Source: Paenibacillus sp. FSL H7-0331 (GTDB taxonomy: Bacteria; Bacillota; Bacilli; Paenibacillales; NBRC-103111). From it: a stretch of DNA of 16,653 nt. The position numbers were made by a program, and so were the translations under genes. The DNA is taken from NCBI RefSeq assembly GCF_001956045.1, contig NZ_MRTH01000070.1:1-16653 (forward strand), read 5' to 3'. Positions within the stretch are counted from its first letter, which is position 1. Every line of letters begins with the position of its first letter. The notes beneath the pieces are model-generated. The model saw only the letters and a list, made by a program, of their open reading frames with translations, searched no databases and was not told where the DNA came from. Positions 3,343 through 15,400 of the stretch are shown one piece after another.

Positions 3343-5994
3343 TTATTTAATACTGGTCACTTGAACGGGTCCAATGAGCCCGCTTGGCTCCTGCTGTGCG
3401 AAGGAGGATAAGAAGTCGCGTTGATCCTTCACTAGCGTATTCGTAACTTCGATGACAAGCTTGTTGATGCCCTTCTTGATCAACCCATTGATTTCCAAGC
3501 AGTAGGGCGGACAAATTCGCACTCCAACGTGCTCGCCATTTAACCATACTTCTGCCGTTTCATAGACCTCACCCAGCTCCAGCAAAACTCGGCTACTGGA
3601 TTCACTCCACTCGAAGTCCGTCTCATAACGGAAGGTTCCCGTAAAACGGGGCAAGCAGTCAGGCCGACTCATATTCGTTAAAGTCGCCAGTTTTCCCCAT
3701 TCCCTAAATCGAGGATATTGTTCGGATTGGGTGGTGGATACAGTCCATTCGCCTTTAAGTTCAAGATCCGACCCCAATGTATATGGCGGCAACGTGTCAT
3801 AACCTTCCAAATCTGCTCCATGGAGCAAAACAACGGATTCATACGGATGAATGACAAGCTGCACCTCAGTCACATCAGTATCCCCATTTACATCCAGCTT
3901 GGTCAACCGATTCAGGAAGGCATCATAGGCATATACATTGCCCTGGACCGGCAAATCCATCTTCGTTTTGATGGTTTGATGCGGGTGTTCATTAAAAAAC
4001 ATAAAAACATCCAAACCATCATGAAGATAGTGATAGTGCCGAAGATAGGGTTCGTTTTTGGCAAGTCTAATATCATAATATCCGTCTGCAATAAGTTCTT
4101 GTGACAGCTTGTCTAATGGCACTACCTTAACGTGCCTGTGATTGGCAAGGAGAGACAGTTCAGCAGAGACATCTTTGCCTTCGCTCGAACGTGAGGGCAA
4201 TTCGTTTATAAAACGAACGGCTAATCCTTGCTCGGCAAGCTGAGCCAAACGTCGAACCATCGCTGTCGGAAGCGCTTCGGCATAGGGCACGACCAGACAT
4301 TCATAAGCTTCGATATTTACCTGCAGCTTGCCATCTTTCACGTTGGCCGCATCCAGAAGAATATCTACGGGAAGAACATCGCAGTCAATTTGATGCTGCA
4401 TTAATTCCTTTACAGGCTTATGAAAATACATAGAATCTCCAGACCACTCGGCTTCAGCGTGATATATGACTGCAGCTGTCGCCACATGCCTTCCGCCTGA
4501 AATCAGGTGGCACATCCGATTCATATACCCATTTAAATACTTGTAGTAGCGGTACTGCGGATTTTTCCCGCTTGCATACATATGCGGCGGGCAATCCGGA
4601 TCCGGAAAAGCTTTCTGGGTAAAAGAATGCGGGACAAAATAATTGACTCCGCGAACCAACATATGGTCTGTGATCCATTTCATTAGTTTCAAGCCTTCCG
4701 CCCAGCCATATGCCCCATACACTTCACACATCGTCCGGCCTTGTTTTTTCGGATCGATGTGTCCAAGCGATACACCAAGCTTAGCGAGGCCATAGTGGAA
4801 AAATTCACTATCCGTATCGCCTCCCGGCTTGCTAAAAGACAATTCATCGAAGCCGGGGACAATCTGCCACAGCACCACATCAAGACCCGACATGTCTTGT
4901 CCCCACATTGAACGGAAGAAGTGTCCGGCGCCGGAGCCAAGCCTTGCATGCACGTTGTTGTCTTCAAGTACATGTCCAATGTATTCTACTCCGCGGGTTC
5001 TGCACCACTCTCCGATTTGGCTGCAAAAGTTGTCCGCGTAGAGCTTGCTGACAATATTCATATAGGTGTACCGTACGATATTGGTCTGTTCTCCCGCATC
5101 ATGCCAGAGGAGTGGCAGGTACTTACGGTAGTCCCCTCCTAACGCCTGCTCAAGCAAATCTGACATTTCACTGCTCCAAGGAAGCGGCACCCCTTTTTTT
5201 CCGGGCTTCGAATTGAAGTCAAAGGTTGTCTTATCATTGTAGAATCCGGGTTCGTCCGAAAAGAATCCGGCAAATGTCTTTCCGAAATCGGCCTTGTATC
5301 GTTCATACACAGCCTCATATACCGTATCGAGCAGAATACGAACGGAATCCCGATCTAGCGGGTTCAGATAATCTTCCTGCTGCTGGCTGCCGCCATCCTT
5401 ATTTTCAGAAATAATAAATACTCGCCAATACCCTTCCGGGATATCCCAATATAAGATCCCGTCTTGCACAAGGTCAGTAATGTCGGTACATTCACTGAGT
5501 AATGTTCCATTGGATGGATCTCGGCGTACCGCGACAACGGAAATTAATTTATTTTTGCCACTTGCGTTTTGGGGCTGCGAGATGGTCGGTCGAAGCCCAC
5601 GCATCAGCAAGGTATCCAGCAGCAGAGAGGTTCCTTGCGCAGGACCGAGCGTATCGATATAACGTTCACCCAAAAATTTGCGATGAAGCTCTTCCGGAGC
5701 TTCCTTTACTTTGCCTGCCGCATTTCCCGTTGGAAAATGGTCATCATCAAGCAACCATACCTTCATACCCCGATTCCGGGCTTCCTCCATAATAATGTCC
5801 ATGTCCGCCCACCATTTCGGTCCAAGAAAATCTGGATGAGGCCGAGCCTCCACACAAATGGCCCCGATTCCGGCTTCATGAACACGGACCATCTCCTCAC
5901 GAATCACCTTCTCTTCCTCGCCATGCTGCCAGAGAAAAGGAAGGATATAATTATGTTCTTGACCCTCAAGCACTTCCTTTAGACGATTGCCCAT
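3343..5994 (-). CDS. Glycoside hydrolase-like protein, cytoplasmic (GH106/GH2-like layout)
   Basis: The start is taken at 5994, not at the upstream ATG at 6027, because CAGGAGG (6006-6000) lies 5 bases before it; the protein is then 883 residues. The N-terminal third looks like a catalytic (beta/alpha) barrel: NYILPFLWQHGEEE near the start, a strand with VWLLDDDHFPTGNAAG (about 79-94) that resembles the Asp/Glu-containing Trp-Pro-Ser-Gly segment of GH106-type alpha-L-rhamnosidases, and FFSDEPGFYND (about 244-254), whose Asp-Glu is a good candidate for catalysis. The C-terminal 130 residues form a sugar-binding jelly roll as in GH2-related enzymes (ELGEVYETAEVWLNGEHVG, then INKLVIEVTNTL). No signal peptide is seen, so it should act in the cytoplasm on the sugar brought in by the transporter encoded upstream. 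The exact family and substrate are uncertain; rhamnose- or uronate-containing oligosaccharides are possible. Confidence 0.75.
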   Translation of the reverse strand: MGNRLKEVLEGQEHNYILPFLWQHGEEEKVIREEMVRVHEAGIGAICVEARPHPDFLGPKWWADMDIIMEEARNRGMKVWLLDDDHFPTGNAAGKVKEAPEELHRKFLGERYIDTLGPAQGTSLLLDTLLMRGLRPTISQPQNASGKNKLISVVAVRRDPSNGTLLSECTDITDLVQDGILYWDIPEGYWRVFIISENKDGGSQQQEDYLNPLDRDSVRILLDTVYEAVYERYKADFGKTFAGFFSDEPGFYNDKTTFDFNSKPGKKGVPLPWSSEMSDLLEQALGGDYRKYLPLLWHDAGEQTNIVRYTYMNIVSKLYADNFCSQIGEWCRTRGVEYIGHVLEDNNVHARLGSGAGHFFRSMWGQDMSGLDVVLWQIVPGFDELSFSKPGGDTDSEFFHYGLAKLGVSLGHIDPKKQGRTMCEVYGAYGWAEGLKLMKWITDHMLVRGVNYFVPHSFTQKAFPDPDCPPHMYASGKNPQYRYYKYLNGYMNRMCHLISGGRHVATAAVIYHAEAEWSGDSMYFHKPVKELMQHQIDCDVLPVDILLDAANVKDGKLQVNIEAYECLVVPYAEALPTAMVRRLAQLAEQGLAVRFINELPSRSSEGKDVSAELSLLANHRHVKVVPLDKLSQELIADGYYDIRLAKNEPYLRHYHYLHDGLDVFMFFNEHPHQTIKTKMDLPVQGNVYAYDAFLNRLTKLDVNGDTDVTEVQLVIHPYESVVLLHGADLEGYDTLPPYTLGSDLELKGEWTVSTTQSEQYPRFREWGKLATLTNMSRPDCLPRFTGTFRYETDFEWSESSSRVLLELGEVYETAEVWLNGEHVGVRICPPYCLEINGLIKKGINKLVIEVTNTLVKDQRDFLSSFAQQEPSGLIGPVQVTSIK

Positions 5995-6053
5995 AATAGC
6001 CTCCTGCTTCAACTTAGGTTCATTCATCCAATGCCTGCAGCCTGGATGAAAAT

Positions 6054-6106: not shown

Positions 6107-7687
6107 TTATTTTTTCACTTTCGCATACCATTCTCTAGCGCGCTTCGTTACTTCTTCGCCACCCGATTTGTTCCACTTATCTACAAATTCATCGAATTTG
6201 CTGATCGGGTATTGCCCGAGAATAATTTTGGTAGCGTATTCCACGTACAGCGTACGATTGTTAATGTCCGGGAAGCCGTCATAAACGCTGGCCGGCATAC
6301 CGTCTCCGGCAATGGTCTTGGCGTACTTCTGAGCCTCTTGCATATTTCGGTTAACCTGATCAACAGCCCACATTCTGTCTTCCGACGCTGTAATTTTGTT
6401 TAATTCGGTCATGAAGTCAAGTGTGGATATTTTTGAATAAGGATCAAGAACCAGATTCTCCTGACTACTCTTGTCATCCGGAAGTTTGACGGGTTTGCCG
6501 TCCTTCATCGTATGATGCATACCTTCCACGCCAAGGAATAGAGCGTTCCAATTTTTCTTGTCATACATGTTGTTCAACAGCTTCAGGGTGGCCATCAACT
6601 TCTTCTGATCCTTGGTGTTCTTGACAACCCATTGCGGTTCTAAAAACCTCTTCCAGGTGTAAAAACCTTTGAAGCCCGGGACTTCCGGTACGGGGAGGAC
6701 AGCAAAGTCAGGTTTCACACCAGTGTTCTTGAACGTATTTTCCATATATAAATTGCTCGTTTCCGCCCAATGGAAGAAACTGCCTGCTCTTCCGCCGTTA
6801 ACTTTTCCGTCCCACTTGGCCTTGTCGTTAAGGAGCGTTTCCTTATCCAATAATCCGTCCTTGTACAGCTTGGCGATGAACTCCAAGGCGGCTTTCATAT
6901 TCGGCGTCACCGCTGAATATGAAAGCTTGCCGTCGTACAGGTCCCATTGGGGATTCCCTTCGAACATGGCCACACCGTACATGGCGAACAGATGATCCAT
7001 CCAACGCGCCTCCTGACGTCCACCCGTCGGAAGCTCATCCTTCTGGCCGTTGCCATTGGGATCCTTGTCCCTGAATGCCTCTAGAACCTTGACATAATCC
7101 TCTTGCGTCTTCGGCATCGGCAGGCCCACTTTGTCCAGCCAATCCTTGCGGATCATGCCAGCGTATCTCCCGTAGTCCACCACACCGGGGATATAATAAA
7201 TTCTCCCCTGACCAGTAGGGTCGTTGGCCTTGACAATATCCCACATTTCCTTCGGAACGGCTTGCCATAGGTTCGGGGCATACTTGGGCAACAGGTCAGT
7301 CAGGTCGGCAATCGCGCCGTTTTTAGCCAGACTGTTTTCGATGCCTTCCTTGGGTAAGAACAGGTCCGGCATTTCGTTAGCTGCGATTTTCAGGTTCAAC
7401 TGATTCAGGTAATTAGTGCCTCCGTTCCACTCCACATAGGGATGGATGACGCCGACACCAAGCTTTTCCTTATATAATTCATACAGCTTGCTGCCTTTGG
7501 TGATCGGTTTATAACCGATGTTGGTGCCCCACACTTCAATATCGACAATTTCATCTGCATTGGCGGTCTGATTCTGGGTAGAAGATGAAGAACCTACGGA
7601 AGAGTTCGTGTTTCCGCTGCAGCCGGTGACAGCGGTGATCGCAAGGACACCAGCAGCTGATAATAACCCCATTTTTTTGAAATCCAT
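6107..7687 (-). CDS. Solute-binding lipoprotein of a sugar ABC transporter (LplA-like)
   Basis: A 526-residue lipoprotein. The N-terminus is a lipoprotein signal peptide: MDFKK, hydrophobic core, and the lipobox VTGC with the lipidated Cys at residue 23, followed by a Ser/Asn/Gln-rich flexible linker. The mature part has features of the large LplA/YtcQ group of CUT1 binding proteins, for example ANEMPDLFLPKEG near residue 110, GRIYYIPGVVDYGRYAGMI near 170 and DPNGNGQKDELPTGG near 210, the last a typical calcium-like Asp/Asn loop. It should sit on the outer face of the membrane and hand an oligosaccharide to the two permeases encoded upstream. Good ribosome-binding site (AGAGGGGG, 7-8 bases from the ATG). 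The 69-base gap after the second permease contains a small AGGCA/TGCCT hairpin (7725-7737). Confidence 0.92.
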   Translation of the reverse strand: MDFKKMGLLSAAGVLAITAVTGCSGNTNSSVGSSSSTQNQTANADEIVDIEVWGTNIGYKPITKGSKLYELYKEKLGVGVIHPYVEWNGGTNYLNQLNLKIAANEMPDLFLPKEGIENSLAKNGAIADLTDLLPKYAPNLWQAVPKEMWDIVKANDPTGQGRIYYIPGVVDYGRYAGMIRKDWLDKVGLPMPKTQEDYVKVLEAFRDKDPNGNGQKDELPTGGRQEARWMDHLFAMYGVAMFEGNPQWDLYDGKLSYSAVTPNMKAALEFIAKLYKDGLLDKETLLNDKAKWDGKVNGGRAGSFFHWAETSNLYMENTFKNTGVKPDFAVLPVPEVPGFKGFYTWKRFLEPQWVVKNTKDQKKLMATLKLLNNMYDKKNWNALFLGVEGMHHTMKDGKPVKLPDDKSSQENLVLDPYSKISTLDFMTELNKITASEDRMWAVDQVNRNMQEAQKYAKTIAGDGMPASVYDGFPDINNRTLYVEYATKIILGQYPISKFDEFVDKWNKSGGEEVTKRAREWYAKVKK

Positions 7688-7756: not shown

Positions 7757-8626
7757 TTACCCTTTTACAGAGCCGATCATGGCTCCTTTGACAAAGTATT
7801 TCTGCAAGAAAGGATACACCAAAATGATCGGAATGATAGCAAAGATTACGGTCGCTGCTCTTAAGGTCCGCTCGTTATAGTTCAGATCAACCGTTGAAGC
7901 GGCACCCGCCATAATAACATTATCGTCGGTGATGAACTGCCGGATCTTGATCTGCAGCGGGAACCAGTTCGGATCTTGCAGGAAAAGGAGAGGATGCTGG
8001 AACTGGTTCCATAGCACCACACCATAGAATAGAGCCAGTGTAGCCAATACCGCCTTGGACAGCGGAAGCACGAATTGGAACAGCATCCGGAAATATCCGC
8101 TGCCCTCAAGGAAGGCAGCTTCTTCCAATTCTTTGGAGAATTGCTTGAAGAAGGTTCTCATGATGATTAGATTGAACGGATTCAGTATATGCGGTACGAT
8201 CAGAACCAGCGGATTATTATAAAGTCCGATGCCACGAACCGTCAGGAAGTAAGGCACGATAGGCGCCTTGAAGATCATCGCAATTACGATGCCTATCATA
8301 ATCACTGGCCCCCAGCGGAACTCTGGCTTCGACAATGGGTAAGCAAGCAAAGCGGTCATTAGCAGAGCCAAAAGTGTTCCGATCACCGTCGAACCCAAGG
8401 TCAAGAAGAACGATTTCCACAGATCGGGACGATCGATGATGTTCCCCCAGGAGTCTAACGTAAATTGCTTCGGCCATATCGTTACCAAGTTCATATCCAC
8501 AGCACTTTTGGAGCTAAGCGAGGTGGAGATCACCGATAGAAGCGGTATGAGCGCTATGATGGACAGCAGGATGAGTGATACTGTAATGGCAGTGACGAAT
8601 ACTTTTTCCCCTCTCGATTCAAACAT
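7757..8626 (-). CDS. Sugar ABC transporter permease (LplC/MalG-like)
   Basis: A 289-residue inner-membrane permease with about six hydrophobic segments, beginning with TAITVSLILLSIIALIPLL. The cytoplasmic EAA loop that docks on the ATPase is seen as ELEEAAFLEGSGYFRMLFQF followed by VLPLSK (about residues 167-192). The order of features and the end YPFLQKYFVKGAMIGSVKG are typical of the second permease in CUT1 systems of the LplB/LplC type. Its ATG comes 3 bases after the stop codon of the first permease, so translation is probably coupled; the Shine-Dalgarno GGATGGGGGG lies inside the end of that gene. No ATPase gene is encoded nearby, and a shared MsmX-type ATPase elsewhere is likely. Confidence 0.93.
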   Translation of the reverse strand: MFESRGEKVFVTAITVSLILLSIIALIPLLSVISTSLSSKSAVDMNLVTIWPKQFTLDSWGNIIDRPDLWKSFFLTLGSTVIGTLLALLMTALLAYPLSKPEFRWGPVIMIGIVIAMIFKAPIVPYFLTVRGIGLYNNPLVLIVPHILNPFNLIIMRTFFKQFSKELEEAAFLEGSGYFRMLFQFVLPLSKAVLATLALFYGVVLWNQFQHPLLFLQDPNWFPLQIKIRQFITDDNVIMAGAASTVDLNYNERTLRAATVIFAIIPIILVYPFLQKYFVKGAMIGSVKG

Positions 8627-8629
8627 GTC

Positions 8630-9535
8630 TTACCAGAGCCCCCCATCCGAAACTTTCTTCGACAGCCTATTGAAGACGTACACCAGGATAAATCCAATTA
8701 TCGACTGGAACAACCCTACCGCCGTCGCAAAGCTGTACTGCGCTTGCTGAATGCCTGTCCGGAACACGTACGTATCCAGGATATCTCCTACACTATAGGT
8801 CATCGGGGTGAGCAGATTGAACACTTGATCAAAGCCCAGATCCAAGAAGTTACCGATTTCAAGCAGGAACAGTATCAGCACGGTAGGTAAAAGAAGTGGA
8901 AACGTAATGTGACGAATTTGCCGGAACTTGGACGCGCCGTCAATCATCGCCGATTCATAGAGTTGAGGGTCGATCGCGCTGATCGCGGCCATATACACTA
9001 CCGTTCCCCAACCGGCATCCCTCCACATGGATGCGATCACGTAAACAGGCCGAAAGTATGCGCTTTCCTGCATTGCCAGCAGGGGTTCAAATCCAAACCA
9101 CCCGATTACAATGTTGAACAATCCGCTTAATGAAAAGAAATCGAAGATGATACCAGCAACAATGACCCAAGACAAAAAATGTGGAATGTACAGAGCAGTC
9201 TGGATCCCTTTCTTCAGCGCCGATTTTCGAATCTCGTTGATCATCAGCGCCAGTACAACGGGCATCGGGAAGACCAATACGAGCTTGAGAAAACCAAGCA
9301 TCAGCGTGTTGCCGAACACTCGGAAGAAGTCAAGATGGTGAAACAGGGTCCTAAAATGCTTGAGACCTACCCAGGGACTATCGATAAACCCTTTGAAAAC
9401 CGAATAGTCCTTGAAGGCGATTACAGCACCGGCCAGCGGAATGTATTTGAATACGATGAGAAAAATGATTCCCGGAATCGCCATCACATACAACGGCCAA
9501 AAAACCTTCATTCGATGAAATGCAACTGCTTTCAA
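8630..9535 (-). CDS. Sugar ABC transporter permease (LplB-like), first gene of operon
   Basis: A 301-residue membrane protein. It starts at a TTG codon (9535-9533) with GGGGG 7 bases upstream; the next in-frame ATG is eight codons on and lacks such a site. The N-terminus (VFWPLYVMAIPGIIFLIVFK, then YIPLAGAVIAFKDYSVFKG) is typical of LplB/YteP permeases, and the EAA loop reads LYESAMIDGASKFRQIRHIT followed by FPLLLP. About six transmembrane segments are visible. It is the first gene of the uptake operon and lies only about 40 bases from the predicted transcription start, behind a promoter with a two-part activator site and a cre-like box. Confidence 0.93.
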   Translation of the reverse strand: MKAVAFHRMKVFWPLYVMAIPGIIFLIVFKYIPLAGAVIAFKDYSVFKGFIDSPWVGLKHFRTLFHHLDFFRVFGNTLMLGFLKLVLVFPMPVVLALMINEIRKSALKKGIQTALYIPHFLSWVIVAGIIFDFFSLSGLFNIVIGWFGFEPLLAMQESAYFRPVYVIASMWRDAGWGTVVYMAAISAIDPQLYESAMIDGASKFRQIRHITFPLLLPTVLILFLLEIGNFLDLGFDQVFNLLTPMTYSVGDILDTYVFRTGIQQAQYSFATAVGLFQSIIGFILVYVFNRLSKKVSDGGLW

Positions 9536-9560: not shown

Positions 9561-9574
9561 TGAATTCGCTTACA
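9561..9574 (-). promoter_or_regulatory. cre-like box (CcpA site) at the uptake-operon start site
   Basis: On the minus strand TGTAAGCGAATTCA fits the Bacillus cre pattern TGNAARCGNWWWCA at every fixed position. It begins 5 bases after the -10 box, covering the expected transcription start, where CcpA blocks initiation. The kinase operon has a matching box in the same place, which makes chance less likely. Confidence 0.65.
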
Positions 9575-9579
9575 GTATA

Positions 9580-9608
9580 ACTATACAACTAGAGTATACA
9601 TTGCTCAA
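9580..9608 (-). promoter_or_regulatory. Promoter of the permease-permease-lipoprotein-hydrolase operon
   Basis: Minus strand: -35 TTGAGC (9608-9603), 17-base spacer, -10 TATAGT (9585-9580). Predicted start near 9573, giving a leader of about 40 bases before the TTG start codon. The -35 box is moderate, which fits dependence on an activator bound at 9611-9641. An inverted repeat CTAGTTG/CAACTAG (9553-9559 and 9586-9592) also frames this region. Confidence 0.7.
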
Positions 9609-9610
9609 TT

Positions 9611-9641
9611 GGGCATTTTTAAGTTTAAACAAGGTGATTTT
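9611..9641 (-). promoter_or_regulatory. Direct-repeat activator site, uptake operon
   Basis: Read on the minus strand, AAAATCACC (9641-9633) and AAAATGCCC (9619-9611) form two half-sites whose starts are 22 bases apart, two helical turns. The site ends 2 bases before the -35 box. The same layout, with near-identical sequence including the TTGT..AAACTT stretch between the half-sites, occurs before the kinase gene at 13296-13326. AraC-type proteins bind such direct repeats next to the -35 box, so the regulator encoded at 9689-11272 is the natural candidate. Confidence 0.7.
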
Positions 9642-9654
9642 ATAGAATAAATTG

Positions 9655-9677
9655 AAAACCACTCCTATATGGAGTGG
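9655..9677 (-). terminator. Terminator of the kinase/regulator operon
   Basis: CCACTCC (9659-9665) and GGAGTGG (9671-9677) form a perfect 7-pair stem with a 5-base loop; on the minus strand TTTT CAATTTATT follows. It starts 11 bases after the response-regulator stop codon. Confidence 0.85.
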
Positions 9678-9688
9678 CTAAGTACCGA

Positions 9689-11272
9689 TTAAACACTCGG
9701 TAGGTTCTTGCGGTATTCCCTGGGTTTGCACCCTGTCAGTTTCTCGAACAGTCGCGCAAAATGCTGAGTATCCGAGTATCCTACCATCTGGCAGATCTCG
9801 TACACTTTCAAATCTGTCTTCTCCAGCAGTTCTTTCGCTTTACCAATTCGGGTCTGCGTCAAAAAATTCATATAAGTATCCCCCGTCTTTTGTTTGAAAA
9901 ACTGGCTTAAATAATAGGGGCTGATGAAAAAACGTCCAGCTAGATCTGCTAGTGTGATCGGTTCATTGTAATGTGTAGATACGTATTCCTTAACCTCAGT
10001 GATAATGTCCTTTTTCTTGGGAATATTATGCTCCAGCTTGAACGTAATTATTCTTCTGATGACTTGAACCATCCATTCCTCTAGACGCTCTAACGTCCGG
10101 AACCGCGAAATGCCCTCTAGTGACAAAATATGACGGCCTAAGAAATCGTTTTGCTGCAGCTGCTGAAAGGACATCTTCCGAACACTTGATAGAAGGATGT
10201 TCAAACACTGTAGCTGGAGATCTGCCGGGCTCATGTCTGGTTCGGCTTCCATCCCTCGAAAGATCTCGCGGATGATACCTACACATTCCATCTCGTCCAT
10301 GTTGTCGAGACCAGCTTCCAATTTAGCTATCATCACTTCAGGAACAGGGTGAATCCGTCCTGTCAGATTCATGATCTCGGGAAATTGGATCACGGCGGCA
10401 GCCCCCTTGACGACTTTATAGCTTAATGCATAACGGGCTTCCTCAAAAGACTGGCTGATTCCAGTGGCCCGTTTCTGAACCGTACCTATTCCGACAGTCA
10501 TGGACAGTTCCAATTCCCGGTAGACCTCCTCCTTAAGACGTTGTACCGAACGAACCAGATTTCCATACTCGATGGAACTGCCTTGGGTAACCACCACTGC
10601 TACTTGGGCACCCGAATAACGAAACCGATACACTCCACGGTACTGCCCCAGGGCCAGATCGATTTGCCCGTACACCTGCTGAAGACTAAATTCCTTCAAA
10701 GCATCGACGTTGCCGTCGAATTCAAGCAAGATACAAGCGAACCAGACACCCTCTGTTGGAATTCGCGCAATCTGAAGCAGTTCTTCCATAAGTTCCGAAT
10801 TTTCGCTGTCGACATCTAGGACATCCCGCAAGGCGCTCTCTTGCATACGGCTGTGAACCTCTTGCTTTAATTCGTCCACTTCCTGTAGCTTGGCCCTGTC
10901 CGCACGTACCACCTCTATGACCTGATAAATGCAGTCGCGTAGCTCCTCTTCCTCAACCGGCTTATTGAGGTAAAACTGCACTCCCAGTTGAATGCCTCTT
11001 CGAGCATATTCGAAGTCGGCATAACCACTTAACAGAATGAATTTAGTCTGACTGCCCTTGTCTTTCAGCATTTTTATCATGTCAAGGCCGTCAGACTGTG
11101 GCATTTGAATATCCGTAATGACAATGTCCGGCTGCAGTTTTTGAATTATTTTGAACCCCTCCAAACCATTATAAGCTGCGCCGACGACCTCGCATTCCGG
11201 TATATAGCGGCTTATCATTTTTTTGAGACCTTCTACTATGCCTTTCTCGTCATCAACCAAGATCAACCTCAT
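9689..11272 (-). CDS. AraC-type response regulator (YesN-like)
   Basis: A 527-residue regulator with three parts. Residues 1-120 are a receiver domain: acidic pair Asp7-Asp8, phosphate-accepting Asp54 in DIVITDIQMP, Ser82 in LLSGYADFEYA and Lys104 in LNKPV. The middle (about 120-420) is a linker domain of the kind common in these Paenibacillus regulators, with a weak nucleotide-cyclase-like segment ELSMTVGIGTVQ. Residues 424-527 hold two helix-turn-helix motifs of the AraC family: ITLADLAGRFFISPYYLSQF and, near the end, VYEICQMVGYSDTQHFARLF, with the family ending GCKPREYRK. It is phosphorylated, in all likelihood, by the kinase encoded 41 bases upstream, and should bind the direct repeats before the transport operon and before the kinase gene. 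AAGGAGAGG lies about 11 bases before the ATG. Confidence 0.93.
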   Translation of the reverse strand: MRLILVDDEKGIVEGLKKMISRYIPECEVVGAAYNGLEGFKIIQKLQPDIVITDIQMPQSDGLDMIKMLKDKGSQTKFILLSGYADFEYARRGIQLGVQFYLNKPVEEEELRDCIYQVIEVVRADRAKLQEVDELKQEVHSRMQESALRDVLDVDSENSELMEELLQIARIPTEGVWFACILLEFDGNVDALKEFSLQQVYGQIDLALGQYRGVYRFRYSGAQVAVVVTQGSSIEYGNLVRSVQRLKEEVYRELELSMTVGIGTVQKRATGISQSFEEARYALSYKVVKGAAAVIQFPEIMNLTGRIHPVPEVMIAKLEAGLDNMDEMECVGIIREIFRGMEAEPDMSPADLQLQCLNILLSSVRKMSFQQLQQNDFLGRHILSLEGISRFRTLERLEEWMVQVIRRIITFKLEHNIPKKKDIITEVKEYVSTHYNEPITLADLAGRFFISPYYLSQFFKQKTGDTYMNFLTQTRIGKAKELLEKTDLKVYEICQMVGYSDTQHFARLFEKLTGCKPREYRKNLPSV

Positions 11273-11313: not shown

Positions 11314-13095
11314 CTAAAGCTTAGGGATTAAGAATTCGACCGTCGTTCCACGATCAACCGCAGGACGAATCGTCACATAATACCGATCACCATAATGGAG
11401 TTTGATACGTTCGGCGATATTTTTAAGACCTAACCCGTTTCGCTCCGGTGCATCGGTTTCTTCGAGTTTATATTTGTCCGATTGAGCATCCTCCAGTACT
11501 GCAATCAGTTCTTTTTGTTTCTCCAAAGAAATACCGCCCCCGTCATCCGTTATCCGGATTAAGATTTCCCCATCTTCCGTCCAGACGCCTTCAATATCGA
11601 TATTCATGGGCCGACTGTAGTCCTCAAATCCATGGTTGATACTGTTCTCCACAATAGGCTGAAATATCAGCGGGATGATGGTGCAATTCAGTATCTCATC
11701 TGGGATTCTGATATCTAGTCTGAACATATTATCAAACCGGATGTTTTGAAGTTCTAAGTAATTGATCGTATAATCCAATTCATGCTTCACCGAATGATGT
11801 CTGCCCTCTTTACCTAAAGCTAGCCTAAACATGCGAGCCAGAATTTTAATCATACTGGCTGTCTCCTCATCATCTTTCATCAACGCCTTCATGCGGATGG
11901 ATTCCAAGGTATTGTACAACATGTGGGGGTTGATCTGATTTTGAAGTGCGATGAATTTAGCTTGACGCTGCTTGATCTCCGCGATATACACGTCTTCAAT
12001 TAAGGTTCGGATCGTTATAATCATTTTGTTGTAACTGTTCACCAGACTTCCGATCTCGTCATTGGCCTGCTCTTTCTCTATGGGCAAGTATTGGCCTGCT
12101 TCTGCCTGCTTCATACTTCTACGGAGCGCTTTAATAGGTCTTGTGATCGTATAGCTTAAACCAAGTGAGATGCAGGTTATGACCAGACAGCTCATCAGGA
12201 TCACGATCACCGTCATTCCTTTGATCTGATTAATTTTCTGCAGCAGCTTCGAGCGCGGAATTTCTGTTTTGATAAACAGATTTCCCTGTGAGGTGATTCC
12301 CGATAAAATAATTCGGTCATAGCTGCCGTCATCCTTGTTGTACTCTACTCCGGATTCAAGCACCTGCTGCCAGGATAAACGGCCGCTGGCGGCGTCGGAA
12401 TGATAGACGATTTCTCTTTGTCGATTGCTTATGACGACACTCATGCCATATTTATCCCGAGCCAAGACAAAATCATGATCAAGCTGCAGCAGTGTAAAAG
12501 GATCCAGATCGATGAGAAGTATGCCCGCATATGCCCCGTCTGAACTGAACAGTACCCTTCCTACCGTCACTACGGCTCCTGCCCCTTTATCCTCATAATA
12601 GGAACGGTCATGTAACCCGGTAATAAAAAACGTATCATCCGAATTGCGGAGCCGCTTGTACCACTCACGGGATAACAACATGTTCTCATTCACTCTACTT
12701 GTTGTACTGGTATATTGATACACGCTGTTATCGCGACTGATCAACATCACGGTACTGATCTCCGATTTGAGCAACGCAACCCGCATCAGTATCCGCTGGA
12801 CAGCAAATTTTTGAATAATCAACTCGTCCATGGGCAAACTTGGCTCTTCTCCGATCCTGTAGATCAATTCGTTTTCGACCAGTACCGACTTCGTGACCGT
12901 GTCATATTCTTTGATGAATTCGTTCAAAGTAGTTCTGATTTGGGACGTATACAGAGAGGCGAATTCTTGGGAGGAATCCTCAAGCCCCGCTGCCGATTGG
13001 TGGAAAATAATGGAACTAACACCAAGCAGCGGAATTACACATGCCAGAAGGTAACCTACCAATAATTTATTTTGGAACCTCATGTTTCTTATCAT
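11314..13095 (-). CDS. Sensor histidine kinase (YesM-like, PF06580 type)
   Basis: Start placed at 13095 (ATG), since AGGAAGG lies 8 bases before it; an in-frame TTG at 13116 has no good site. The product has 593 residues. A membrane segment at about 11-31 (KLLVGYLLACVIPLLGVSS) and a second at about 293-316 enclose an extracellular sensor part of some 260 residues, probably a Cache-type fold (VVTVGRVLFSSDGAYAGILL is typical). A HAMP linker follows (ITRPIKALRRSMKQAEAG). The phosphate-accepting His391 lies in NQINPHMLYNTLE. ATP-binding motifs are visible: PIVENSINHGFED (Asn484), ITDDGGGIS and ERNGLGLKNIAERI. It should sense an extracellular sugar or cell-wall signal and phosphorylate the AraC-type regulator encoded next in the operon. 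Its predicted promoter is about 160 bases upstream, leaving a long leader. Confidence 0.93.
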   Translation of the reverse strand: MIRNMRFQNKLLVGYLLACVIPLLGVSSIIFHQSAAGLEDSSQEFASLYTSQIRTTLNEFIKEYDTVTKSVLVENELIYRIGEEPSLPMDELIIQKFAVQRILMRVALLKSEISTVMLISRDNSVYQYTSTTSRVNENMLLSREWYKRLRNSDDTFFITGLHDRSYYEDKGAGAVVTVGRVLFSSDGAYAGILLIDLDPFTLLQLDHDFVLARDKYGMSVVISNRQREIVYHSDAASGRLSWQQVLESGVEYNKDDGSYDRIILSGITSQGNLFIKTEIPRSKLLQKINQIKGMTVIVILMSCLVITCISLGLSYTITRPIKALRRSMKQAEAGQYLPIEKEQANDEIGSLVNSYNKMIITIRTLIEDVYIAEIKQRQAKFIALQNQINPHMLYNTLESIRMKALMKDDEETASMIKILARMFRLALGKEGRHHSVKHELDYTINYLELQNIRFDNMFRLDIRIPDEILNCTIIPLIFQPIVENSINHGFEDYSRPMNIDIEGVWTEDGEILIRITDDGGGISLEKQKELIAVLEDAQSDKYKLEETDAPERNGLGLKNIAERIKLHYGDRYYVTIRPAVDRGTTVEFLIPKL

Positions 13096-13246
13096 AAAAG
13101 CATCCTTCCTATCCAACTTTTGCGCTCTACTTTCTTTCTCTAACTATTGTACCCGCCAAGATGCCTCGACGCTACCAAAGTATCTTAGGTAGAAAATAGT
13201 AATGACAATTATTCTTTTGTTACGAGTTGGAAAATCTAATATCCTT

Positions 13247-13260
13247 TGTATTCGTTTACA
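13247..13260 (-). promoter_or_regulatory. cre-like box (CcpA site) at the kinase-operon start site
   Basis: Minus strand TGTAAACGAATACA fits TGNAARCGNWWWCA at all fixed positions and is flanked by A/T as in strong cre sites. It begins 4 bases after the -10 box and so covers the expected transcription start, as at the uptake operon. Confidence 0.65.
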
Positions 13261-13264
13261 TGAA

Positions 13265-13293
13265 AATATACTTTAAGAAAAATAATTTATCAA
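13265..13293 (-). promoter_or_regulatory. Promoter of the kinase/regulator operon
   Basis: Minus strand: -35 TTGATA (13293-13288), 17-base spacer, -10 TATATT (13270-13265). Predicted start near 13258, so the leader before the kinase ATG is about 160 bases. I see no riboswitch-like structure in that leader. Confidence 0.7.
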
Positions 13294-13295
13294 AG

Positions 13296-13326
13296 GGGCA
13301 TTTTAAAGTTTTTACAAGGGCATTTT
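13296..13326 (-). promoter_or_regulatory. Direct-repeat activator site, kinase operon
   Basis: Two identical half-sites AAAATGCCC (13326-13318 and 13304-13296, minus strand) have starts 22 bases apart and end 2 bases before the -35 box. The arrangement and the sequence between the halves match the site before the transport operon, so the AraC-type regulator probably activates its own operon here. Confidence 0.72.
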
Positions 13327-13394
13327 CATGATTATTTTAGAACTTGTAGGTCTATATTCTGGATCGGATACAGTAAGTTGGACAGATGAATTGA

Positions 13395-13585
13395 GGGCTA
13401 GTAAATTTGAGTGCATCAGCCTTAGATCGATGGATTAAACAAAGTCAAAACTCAGGATCGTTTATGGAGAAGGCCAATCGTACTCCTGAAGAAAAAGTGC
13501 TCATCACCCTTCGTAAAGAAAATCAACGGCTAATGATGAAAACGATATTTTAAAGCAAGCAGAGCTGATCATAGGACGAAAGTAA
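13395..13585 (+). pseudogene. IS3 orfA fragment with frameshift
   Basis: The frame gives NLSASALDRWIKQSQNSGSF, then MEKANRTPEEKVLITLRKEN, both typical of the helix-turn-helix and leucine-zipper parts of IS3 OrfA. The N-terminal half is missing. After RLMM one base is lacking in a run of A (about 13538-13542); in the shifted frame the normal ending NDILKQAELIIGRK followed by TAA is read. Confidence 0.75.
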
Positions 13586-13845
13586 ATGTGATTCGCATAT
13601 CCCAGGCGTTACATACATTTAGAATTGAACGTTCACTAAGCCAAAAGGGATGCCCCTTCGACAATGCTGTTGCTGAAGCCATGTATAAGGTTTTTAAAAC
13701 GGAATTCGCTAATCCTGATTATTTCTTAAGCTCTGAACAGCTAGCTGTGGAATTAAGTGATTATTTTCACTGGTTTAACCATCATCGAATTCACGGGACG
13801 TTGGACTATCTCACTCCTGTTGAAGCCAAGGAAAGACCCTCATAA
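13582..13845 (+). pseudogene. IS3 orfB (DDE transposase) fragment
   Basis: The first codons VNVIR match the usual beginning of orfB just past the end of orfA, and then the sequence jumps to the C-terminal catalytic part: RSLSQKGCPFDNAVAEAMYK, with the last acidic residue of the DDE triad in the AVAEAM segment, and FHWFNHHRIHGTLDYLTPVE, the family ending. Roughly 200 codons carrying the first two catalytic Asp residues are gone, so it is inactive. A GTG start at 13588 could yield an 85-residue peptide, but no ribosome-binding site is seen. Confidence 0.8.
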
Positions 13846-14619: not shown

Positions 14620-14713
14620 TACATAGTTGCTTCTTAATACACTAATGTGCATTTTATGTGCACGTAAGCGGATAGAGTTAATCATGATCACCAATCGAAG
14701 GAGGAACATCTCA

Positions 14714-15400
14714 ATGAAAATCGCGGTTATTGGAGCAACAGGGGCCACTGGGAGGAAAGTGATGGAGCGAGCACTTGAATTGGGACATGAGGTTGTAGCC
14801 GTGGCTCGCCGGCCGGAAGTCATCACACCCGCAGAGCGGCTCAGCACCCGGCAGGGGGATGTATTCGACGCGTCGAGTATGGCCAAAGCCATTGCCGGTA
14901 CAGATGTGGTAATCAGTTGCATAGGTCCAACCAAAAACTTCTCGCCGGGTACCTTCATGTCGCAGGGAATCCCGAATATCCTTGCGGCAAACTTCTCGCC
15001 GGGTACCGTCATGTCGGAGGGAATCCCGAATATCCTTGTGGCCTGTCAGCGTGCTGGAGTTAAGCGCCTAGTCATGCAGAGCGGCATTGGTCTGAGCGAC
15101 GGGAAAGAACTTTCCGCAGTCAATCGGTGGGCAATACGCATTAACCGGCGCATCTTCTCGAAGGCGATCAAGGACAAGGCCATTGCCGAGCGTGCGGTGC
15201 AACAGAGCGACCTAGATTGGGTTATTGTACGACCGGCCGGACTTCGTGACGTGGCTGCCACTTTGAAATATACGGCAGATCCCTCAGCCCGCATCGCTCC
15301 GTTCCTGCCGCTTCCCTTCTCAGACTGTGCTGACTGCCTCGTACGGGCGGCGACGAGTGAGCCAACCTGGGTAAGGAAGATCGTTAATGTTGGACGATAA
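14714..15400 (+). CDS. NAD(P)-binding oxidoreductase, NmrA/atypical SDR type
   Basis: The start at 14714 is set by AAGGAGG (14698-14704), 9 bases upstream, and by the protein beginning MKIAVIGATGATGRKVMERA, a Rossmann-fold N-terminus with the GxxGxxG dinucleotide-binding loop (residues 7-13). The product has 228 residues. Further family marks are VVAVARRPEVI, GDVFDASSMAKAIAGTDVVI, KRLVMQSGIGLSDGK and DLDWVIVRPAGL, typical of small atypical short-chain dehydrogenase-like proteins (NmrA, flavin reductase-like). It is cytoplasmic; the substrate cannot be told. Odd point: residues about 75-110 hold an 18-residue segment twice in tandem (NFSPGTFMSQGIPNILAA and NFSPGTVMSEGIPNILVA), encoded by a 54-base tandem repeat. 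Other members carry it once as far as I recall. The gene is divergent from tetR and probably under its control. Confidence 0.85.
   Translation: MKIAVIGATGATGRKVMERALELGHEVVAVARRPEVITPAERLSTRQGDVFDASSMAKAIAGTDVVISCIGPTKNFSPGTFMSQGIPNILAANFSPGTVMSEGIPNILVACQRAGVKRLVMQSGIGLSDGKELSAVNRWAIRINRRIFSKAIKDKAIAERAVQQSDLDWVIVRPAGLRDVAATLKYTADPSARIAPFLPLPFSDCADCLVRAATSEPTWVRKIVNVGR
14936..15043 (+). repeat. 54-base tandem duplication inside the oxidoreductase gene
   Basis: Copy 1 (14936-14989) and copy 2 (14990-15043) match at 50 of 54 bases. Each encodes 18 residues and keeps the frame. The four differences cause Phe/Val, Gln/Glu and Ala/Val changes plus one silent change in Ala, so the duplication is not brand-new or has been changed by selection or recombination. 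Confidence 0.95.

What the first reader, a model, noticed from the sequence alone, without database searches (positions are those of the whole stretch)
13288..13326. Same module in front of the kinase gene: predicted autoactivation
Two identical AAAATGCCC half-sites, 22 bases apart, again end 2 bases before a -35 box that has a 17-base spacer to its -10. That the spacing of all parts (half-site, gap, -35, spacer, -10) is the same as at the transport operon suggests a shared, positively autoregulated switch, which can give all-or-none induction.
Basis: partly seen in the sequence, partly recalled or inferred. Interest (0 to 1): 0.75.

Follow-up and report, generated by a model that had tools for sequence, protein, structure and literature searches.

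The report
Predicted self-activating sugar-sensor promoter
In front of a bacterial sugar-sensing gene pair lies the same predicted regulator landing site as in front of the sugar transporter it controls, plus a probable glucose-repression site, so the sensor probably boosts its own production unless better food is present.

Summary
Two AAAATGCCC half-sites 22 bp apart end 2 bp before a -35 box with a 17-bp spacer, in front of a histidine kinase/AraC-type response regulator operon; the transport operon has the same layout, and the 13-bp gap is shared too. A matrix trained only on relatives' transport promoters ranks the kinase site second in the window (50.4 bits; best of 200 shuffles 1.6). In 392 genomes all 111 module matches at E<=1e-5 lie in genomes with this regulator or with remnants of its cluster. 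Best reading: the phosphorylated regulator activates both operons; CcpA represses both. All-or-none induction is neither shown nor testable from sequence. The transport-side module is near universal in relatives; the kinase-promoter operator is found in 20 of 32, weak in one, not found in 11. Two species carry one paralogous copy with it and one without: a natural experiment on feedback. Each component is a known kind; this is a clear new example.

The parts
13318..13326 (-). distal half-site AAAATGCCC, kinase promoter
13305..13317 (-). 13-bp gap TTGTAAAAACTTT, alike in the transport operator
13296..13304 (-). proximal half-site AAAATGCCC, kinase promoter
13265..13293 (-). predicted promoter TTGATA-17-TATATT of the kinase-regulator operon
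13247..13260 (-). cre-like site TGTAAACGAATACA over the predicted start (about 13258)
11314..13095 (-). sensor histidine kinase, 593 aa, phospho-acceptor His about 391 (TTG start at 13116 also possible)
9689..11272 (-). response regulator, receiver (Asp54) + AraC-type HTH, predicted to bind the operator
9657..9679 (-). terminator-like hairpin after the regulator gene
9633..9641 (-). distal half-site AAAATCACC, transport promoter
9611..9619 (-). proximal half-site AAAATGCCC, transport promoter
9580..9608 (-). predicted promoter TTGAGC-17-TATAGT of the transport operon
9561..9574 (-). cre-like site TGTAAGCGAATTCA over the predicted start
8630..9535 (-). ABC permease 1 (TTG start)
7757..8626 (-). 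ABC permease 2
6107..7687 (-). solute-binding protein; no Pfam or NCBIfam match, PDB matches to oligosaccharide-binding proteins such as AlgQ1 and AlgQ2
3343..6027 (-). glycoside hydrolase, alpha-L-rhamnosidase-like (Pfam GH106 over cut-off; NCBIfam equivalog far below cut-off)

Best explanation
The 31-bp element at 13296-13326 is the operator of the AraC-type response regulator encoded in the operon that it precedes. The kinase senses an oligosaccharide (directly or through the solute-binding protein) and phosphorylates Asp54; the phosphorylated regulator, probably a dimer on one face of the DNA, binds the direct repeat and helps RNA polymerase at the adjoining -35 box. It does so at the transport/rhamnosidase operon and at its own kinase-regulator operon: positive autoregulation. 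A cre site over the start of both promoters lets CcpA shut both off when preferred sugar is present. Shown here: layout, excess over chance, conservation, co-occurrence with the regulator, partial distribution at kinase promoters. Inferred: who binds, phosphorylation, sign of the effect, start sites, CcpA repression. Not claimed: bistability.
For: Cross-trained matrices find exactly the two window sites. Layout kept in relatives: gap 2 and spacer 17 the best fit in 32 of 35 transport and 11 of 17 kinase places. Profile R1: 75 matches at E<=1 in 38 sources, by position 40 transport or solute-binding-protein promoters, 21 kinase promoters, 11 divergent promoters, 2 window, 1 unassigned. Strict pattern: 13 matches in 9 of 104 genomes, 0 for the reversed control. 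All 51 regulator-bearing genomes of 392 have the module at E<=1e-5, 5 of 341 others do, and those five hold a shorter regulator or pieces of the cluster. Regulator has receiver and AraC HTH. AraC-like hybrid regulators in Bacteroides are predicted to use direct repeats 21 bp apart (PMC3878776). cre: full 14-letter match at 34 of 36 transport and 14 of 18 kinase promoters against 7 of 4000 random places; ccpA over cut-off in 6 of 6 relatives.
Against: No binding or expression data. Operator and regulator are neighbours, so co-occurrence is largely linkage, and part of the searched genomes supplied training rows. At E<=0.01 R1 also matches 30 regulator-negative genomes weakly, and 25 of these (above 1e-5) were not looked into. 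11 of 32 relatives show no operator at the kinase promoter, so autoregulation is not essential to the system. The window's distal transport half-site has two mismatches. XydSR, the nearest described system read here, is reported not to regulate itself (PMC3572039).
Confidence: 0.75

Rival explanations
1. The regulator binds the element but represses or only tunes the kinase operon (negative or homeostatic autoregulation), while activating transport.
For: The kinase promoter is near consensus in the window (10 of 12) and could work without an activator.
Against: The operator has the same position and spacing relative to -35 as at the transport promoter, next to and not over the promoter boxes, which is the activator position of AraC-type proteins (recalled).
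Confidence: 0.1
2. Another AraC-type protein encoded elsewhere binds the element at both promoters.
For: Searches of relatives' genomes show many candidate matches to the regulator per genome, so related proteins exist; the binder was not tested.
Against: 51 of 51 regulator-bearing genomes have the module, and the 5 of 341 without have a shorter regulator or cluster pieces. Apart from this regulator, the predicted DNA-binding proteins tested in the window are TetR- and MarR-like.
Confidence: 0.1
3. The element at the kinase promoter is a decaying copy of the transport promoter without function.
For: It is degenerate in some relatives and not found in 11 of 32.
Against: In the window both half-sites are perfect; the two promoter classes have their own consensus outside the operator (CTTTGAT against ATTGAG), so they have evolved apart while the operator was kept.
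Confidence: 0.05

Closest known systems
[quoted passage not shown] abstract and passages)
   Same: AraC-type response-regulator DNA-binding domain; direct repeats about two helix turns apart (average 21 bp there, 22 here) before polysaccharide-use genes.
   Different: HTCS join kinase and regulator in one protein; other sequence; no cre in the passages seen.
XydS/XydR of Clostridium cellulolyticum (PMC3572039; passages and first part of the discussion)
   Same: Kinase plus AraC-type regulator next to the plant-polysaccharide genes that it activates; gel shifts upstream of targets.
   Different: Reported not to regulate its own genes (data not shown there) and no binding found upstream of xydS; no such spaced element described.
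YesN/YesM of pneumococcus (PMC11034029; passages and section 17)
   Same: Name and general type of the pair.
   Different: No clear repeat motif was found there for YesN; a conserved AATTC was noted.
Xylo-oligosaccharide and aldouronate two-component clusters of Geobacillus and Paenibacillus JDR-2 (passages and references only; original papers not seen)
   Same: Two-component or regulatory genes beside ABC transporters for plant oligosaccharides; predicted cre in the JDR-2 cluster.
   Different: Operators not seen by me; the original papers may describe one.
CcpA cre boxes of B. subtilis (PMC3463425; abstract and passages)
   Same: Semi-palindrome with central CG; many strong boxes there have the start inside the box, as predicted here; the kinase site fits WTGNNARCGNWWWCAW fully, the transport site in 15 of 16.
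   Different: Position 10 is A here, T in the strong-box consensus; binding not shown.

Membership tests
YesM/YesN-type two-component system | receiver domain with phospho-acceptor Asp plus AraC-type HTH | tested here: met
   Pfam over cut-off, Asp54
YesM/YesN-type two-component system | kinase with His_kinase, HATPase and HAMP domains and extracytoplasmic sensor | tested here: met
   three domains over cut-off; dCache_1 below its cut-off (33.5 of 45 bits)
YesM/YesN-type two-component system | adjacent sugar ABC transporter with solute-binding protein | tested here: met
AraC-type class II activator site | two direct repeats about 21-22 bp apart, proximal one adjoining -35 | tested here: met
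AraC-type class II activator site | binding and activation by the named regulator | not testable with these tools
   needs gel shift, footprint and reporters
Positively autoregulated two-component system | regulator's operator in front of its own operon | tested here: met
   operator assigned to the regulator by inference
Positively autoregulated two-component system | own expression depends on the regulator | not testable with these tools
   no expression data
All-or-none (bistable) switch | two populations or hysteresis | not testable with these tools
   needs single-cell measurements; hexamers give no support
CcpA/cre control | cre consensus near the transcription start | tested here: met
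   start predicted, not mapped; the 15-letter pattern with leading W matches the kinase site only
CcpA/cre control | ccpA in the same genome | tested here: inconclusive
   6 of 6 relatives; window's genome not held

The most novel reading that the evidence does not exclude
A ready-made cassette (regulator operator, promoter, cre) came to stand in front of the sensor-regulator operon in one part of the family and was lost again in others, sometimes with the cre left behind. Where present it closes a positive feedback loop that CcpA can reset, possibly with hysteresis; P. rigui and P. periandrae would run a looped and an unlooped copy side by side.
Probability: 0.25. Interest if true: 0.6.

Novelty: new member of a known kind. 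Interest (0 to 1): 0.45.

Why it matters
The element is specific enough to find its regulon in whole genomes, joins substrate sensing and catabolite repression in one promoter design, and occurs at the kinase promoter in some orthologues and paralogues but not others, so what sensor autoactivation is good for can be tested in nature's own variants. In my paper searches (open-licence PMC only) I saw no operator described for an AraC-type response regulator of Paenibacillus; older subscription papers named were not seen.

Tried and rejected
All-or-none read from promoter strength: not borne out, kinase promoters nearer to consensus in 3, further in 6, tied in 8 of 17 pairs.

The 9-mer alone as a signal: not enriched; only the spaced pair is.

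Known RNA element in the long kinase leader: no Rfam match at gathering scores in the window.

Module without regulator: 5 of 341 regulator-negative genomes at E<=1e-5. L088 and L089 hold a shorter regulator missed by the threshold; L051 (kinase start, hydrolase end), L087 (hydrolase end) and L090 (kinase start) hold pieces of the cluster. The 25 further regulator-negative genomes with matches between 1e-5 and 0.01 were not examined.

Divergent regulon gene: no Pfam match for the four members given, no NCBIfam match for six, no PDB sequence match better than E 0.99 for one, AlphaFold model poor (mean pLDDT 48.8); so no fold search was made.

Rows dropped: places scoring under 22 of 31 and L012, L016, L027 from the transport matrix; L012, L016, L027, L015, L008:11625, L013:11626, L021:11626 from alignment A1; L006:14957, L012, L016, L027 from the transport set and weak kinase hits of L006, L008, L016, L021 from the kinase set; L017 from the tree (early stop in the regulator frame). 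L028 could not be tested at the kinase promoter (contig starts inside the gene) but bears the label 'none' in the tree.

Full report
What is there. On the - strand, upstream of a histidine kinase gene (ATG at 13095, 593 aa) followed 41 bp later by its AraC-type response regulator (9689-11272), two identical AAAATGCCC half-sites lie 22 bp apart and 2 bp before TTGATA-17-TATATT. The transport operon (two permeases, a solute-binding protein, a rhamnosidase-like glycoside hydrolase) has the same layout at 9580-9641 with a less perfect distal half-site, AAAATCACC. The 13 bp between the half-sites are also alike. A terminator-like hairpin (9679-9657) lies between the regulator gene and the transport operator; a hairpin with a T-run was found there in 20 of 24 loci examined, window included. 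So these are probably two transcription units with one promoter design.

Is it more than chance? The 9-mer alone is not. The spaced pair is: none in 300 simulated windows with up to 2 mismatches, two in the real one. Matrices trained only on relatives' promoters, window excluded, put these two places far above the rest of the window and above 200 shuffles, also when trained on the other class of promoter.

Relatives. The regulator found 37 loci; L001-L033, at 38% identity or more, share the gene neighbourhood as far as their contigs reach. A sequence-only profile R1 from 30 transport-side promoters, window excluded (A1), gives 75 matches at E<=1 in 38 sources of 781 kb: by position 40 at transport or solute-binding-protein promoters, 21 at kinase promoters, 11 at divergent promoters, the window's two, and one unassigned (L024:3229). 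A transport-side match is found in all 33, in L027 weakly (E 0.0038); only L012, L015, L016, L026 and L027 supplied no training row. Gap 2 and spacer 17 are the best fit in 32 of 35 transport and 11 of 17 kinase places.

Whole genomes. A strict pattern has 13 matches in 9 of 104 genomes and none for the reversed control. R1 was run on 392 genomes of the order, with stricter filters and 11 candidates scored per genome, so weak sites are undercounted: 81 genomes match at E<=0.01; 111 matches in 56 genomes reach 1e-5. The regulator at E<=1e-80 is in 51 of 392. All 51 have the module at 1e-5; 5 of 341 others do; at 0.01, 30 of 341 do, weakly. Of the five, L088 and L089 contain a shorter regulator, and L051, L087 and L090 only pieces of the cluster. 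103 of 111 matches are within 15 kb of a listed regulator gene; the other eight are these five, a small contig with another permease copy (L045), and two sites on other contigs of regulator-bearing genomes, at an orphan solute-binding-protein gene (L092) and a nucleoside-hydrolase-like gene (L091). Caveats: operator and regulator are neighbours, so much of this is linkage, and part of these genomes supplied training rows.

The missed part: cre. Directly after the -10 box both promoters have TGTAARCGAATWCA, a full match to TGNAANCGNWWWCA (a form of the consensus that I recall). Against WTGNNARCGNWWWCAW, as printed in PMC3463425, the kinase site fits fully and the transport site in 15 of 16 letters. 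With a leading W only the kinase site matches in the window. With up to one mismatch to TGWAANCGNTNWCA the window has 8 listed matches, 5 places since the pattern is nearly palindromic, two of them these promoters, against 1.2 matches expected. In A1, chosen on the operator alone, 10 of the 14 columns are at least 90% conserved. Over all places the match is full at 34 of 36 transport and 14 of 18 kinase promoters (window included) against 7 of 4000 random places; the places were found with a profile that includes these columns, so the share is somewhat flattered. CcpA is over the curated cut-off in 6 of 6 relatives; the window's genome is not held. Many strong cre boxes of B. subtilis have the start inside the box (PMC3463425); with a start 6-7 bp after the -10 box the same holds here (inference).

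Who has the loop. A leave-one-out kinase-promoter matrix finds the operator at z above 6 in 20 of 32 relatives (degenerate in some, such as L008, L011, L013, L021), weakly in L030 (z 4.4), and not in 11. On a regulator tree the strong-kinase-operator label needs 3 changes against a shuffled mean of 11.3, 0 of 500 as low (L011 and L013 were labelled 'none' there). With midpoint rooting it is missing in the deepest branches (L022, L024, L025, L027, L033) and in L031, L019, L015, L006, L012 and L016. L012 and L016 keep a full cre 170 and 138 bp upstream of the kinase gene; L006 keeps a full cre (164 bp) and, by R1 (model positions 18-87), the proximal part. L010 and L012 are both from P. periandrae PM10, L001 and L016 both from P. 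rigui JCM 16352: one copy with the kinase-promoter operator and one without in each.

Mechanism. The regulator has an intact receiver (Asp54) and an AraC-type DNA-binding domain. Direct repeats two helix turns apart with the proximal one next to -35 is what AraC-like hybrid regulators are predicted to use in Bacteroides as far as the repeat goes (average 21 bp; PMC3878776); the -35-adjoining position as an activator position is recalled. I conclude at 0.75 that the phosphorylated regulator activates both operons and CcpA represses both. Autoactivation is an inference from position. Bistability has no support here.

Known or new. Self-regulation of two-component systems, AraC-type direct repeats and cre boxes at the start are each known kinds. 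XydSR is reported not to regulate itself (PMC3572039); for pneumococcal YesN no clear repeat motif was found (PMC11034029). I file this as a new member of a known kind, with a useful natural experiment attached.

Noticed in passing
L001:5904-7724 (-); homologues in L002, L004, L005, L009, L011, L026, L090, L093, L097, L098: A probably secreted protein of about 560-600 aa, 61-89% identical between the ten members compared, stands behind its own copy of the module in L001, L002, L004, L005, L009, L026, L090, L093, L097 and L098. No Pfam, NCBIfam or PDB sequence match for the members tested; not found in the window.
   Followed up: partly
window 13395-13845: Pieces of an IS3-like transposase (Pfam rve_2 and rve_3 over cut-off at 13588-13845) about 70 bp beyond the distal half-site; DNA similarity to relatives ends near 13349-13359.
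   Followed up: partly
window 14935-15042: Two head-to-tail 54-bp copies (94% identical) inside the open frame at 14627-15400.
   Followed up: no
L029, L031, L032, L033 and L088, L089: Shorter forms of the regulator that lack much of the region between receiver and HTH yet have the module at the transport promoter.
   Followed up: no
L051, L087, L090: Pieces of the gene cluster (kinase start, hydrolase end) with the module still in front or beside, while no regulator reached the threshold in those genomes.
   Followed up: partly
L012 and L016 transport and divergent promoters: In these second copies the half-sites are 23 bp apart instead of 22, with the 2-bp gap before -35 kept at the transport promoter by eye; their HTH domains are 79% and 77% identical to the window's.
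   Followed up: no
L017 (P. thalictri) regulator: The regulator frame has an early stop (44 aa to the first stop) although modules at both promoters are kept.
   Followed up: no
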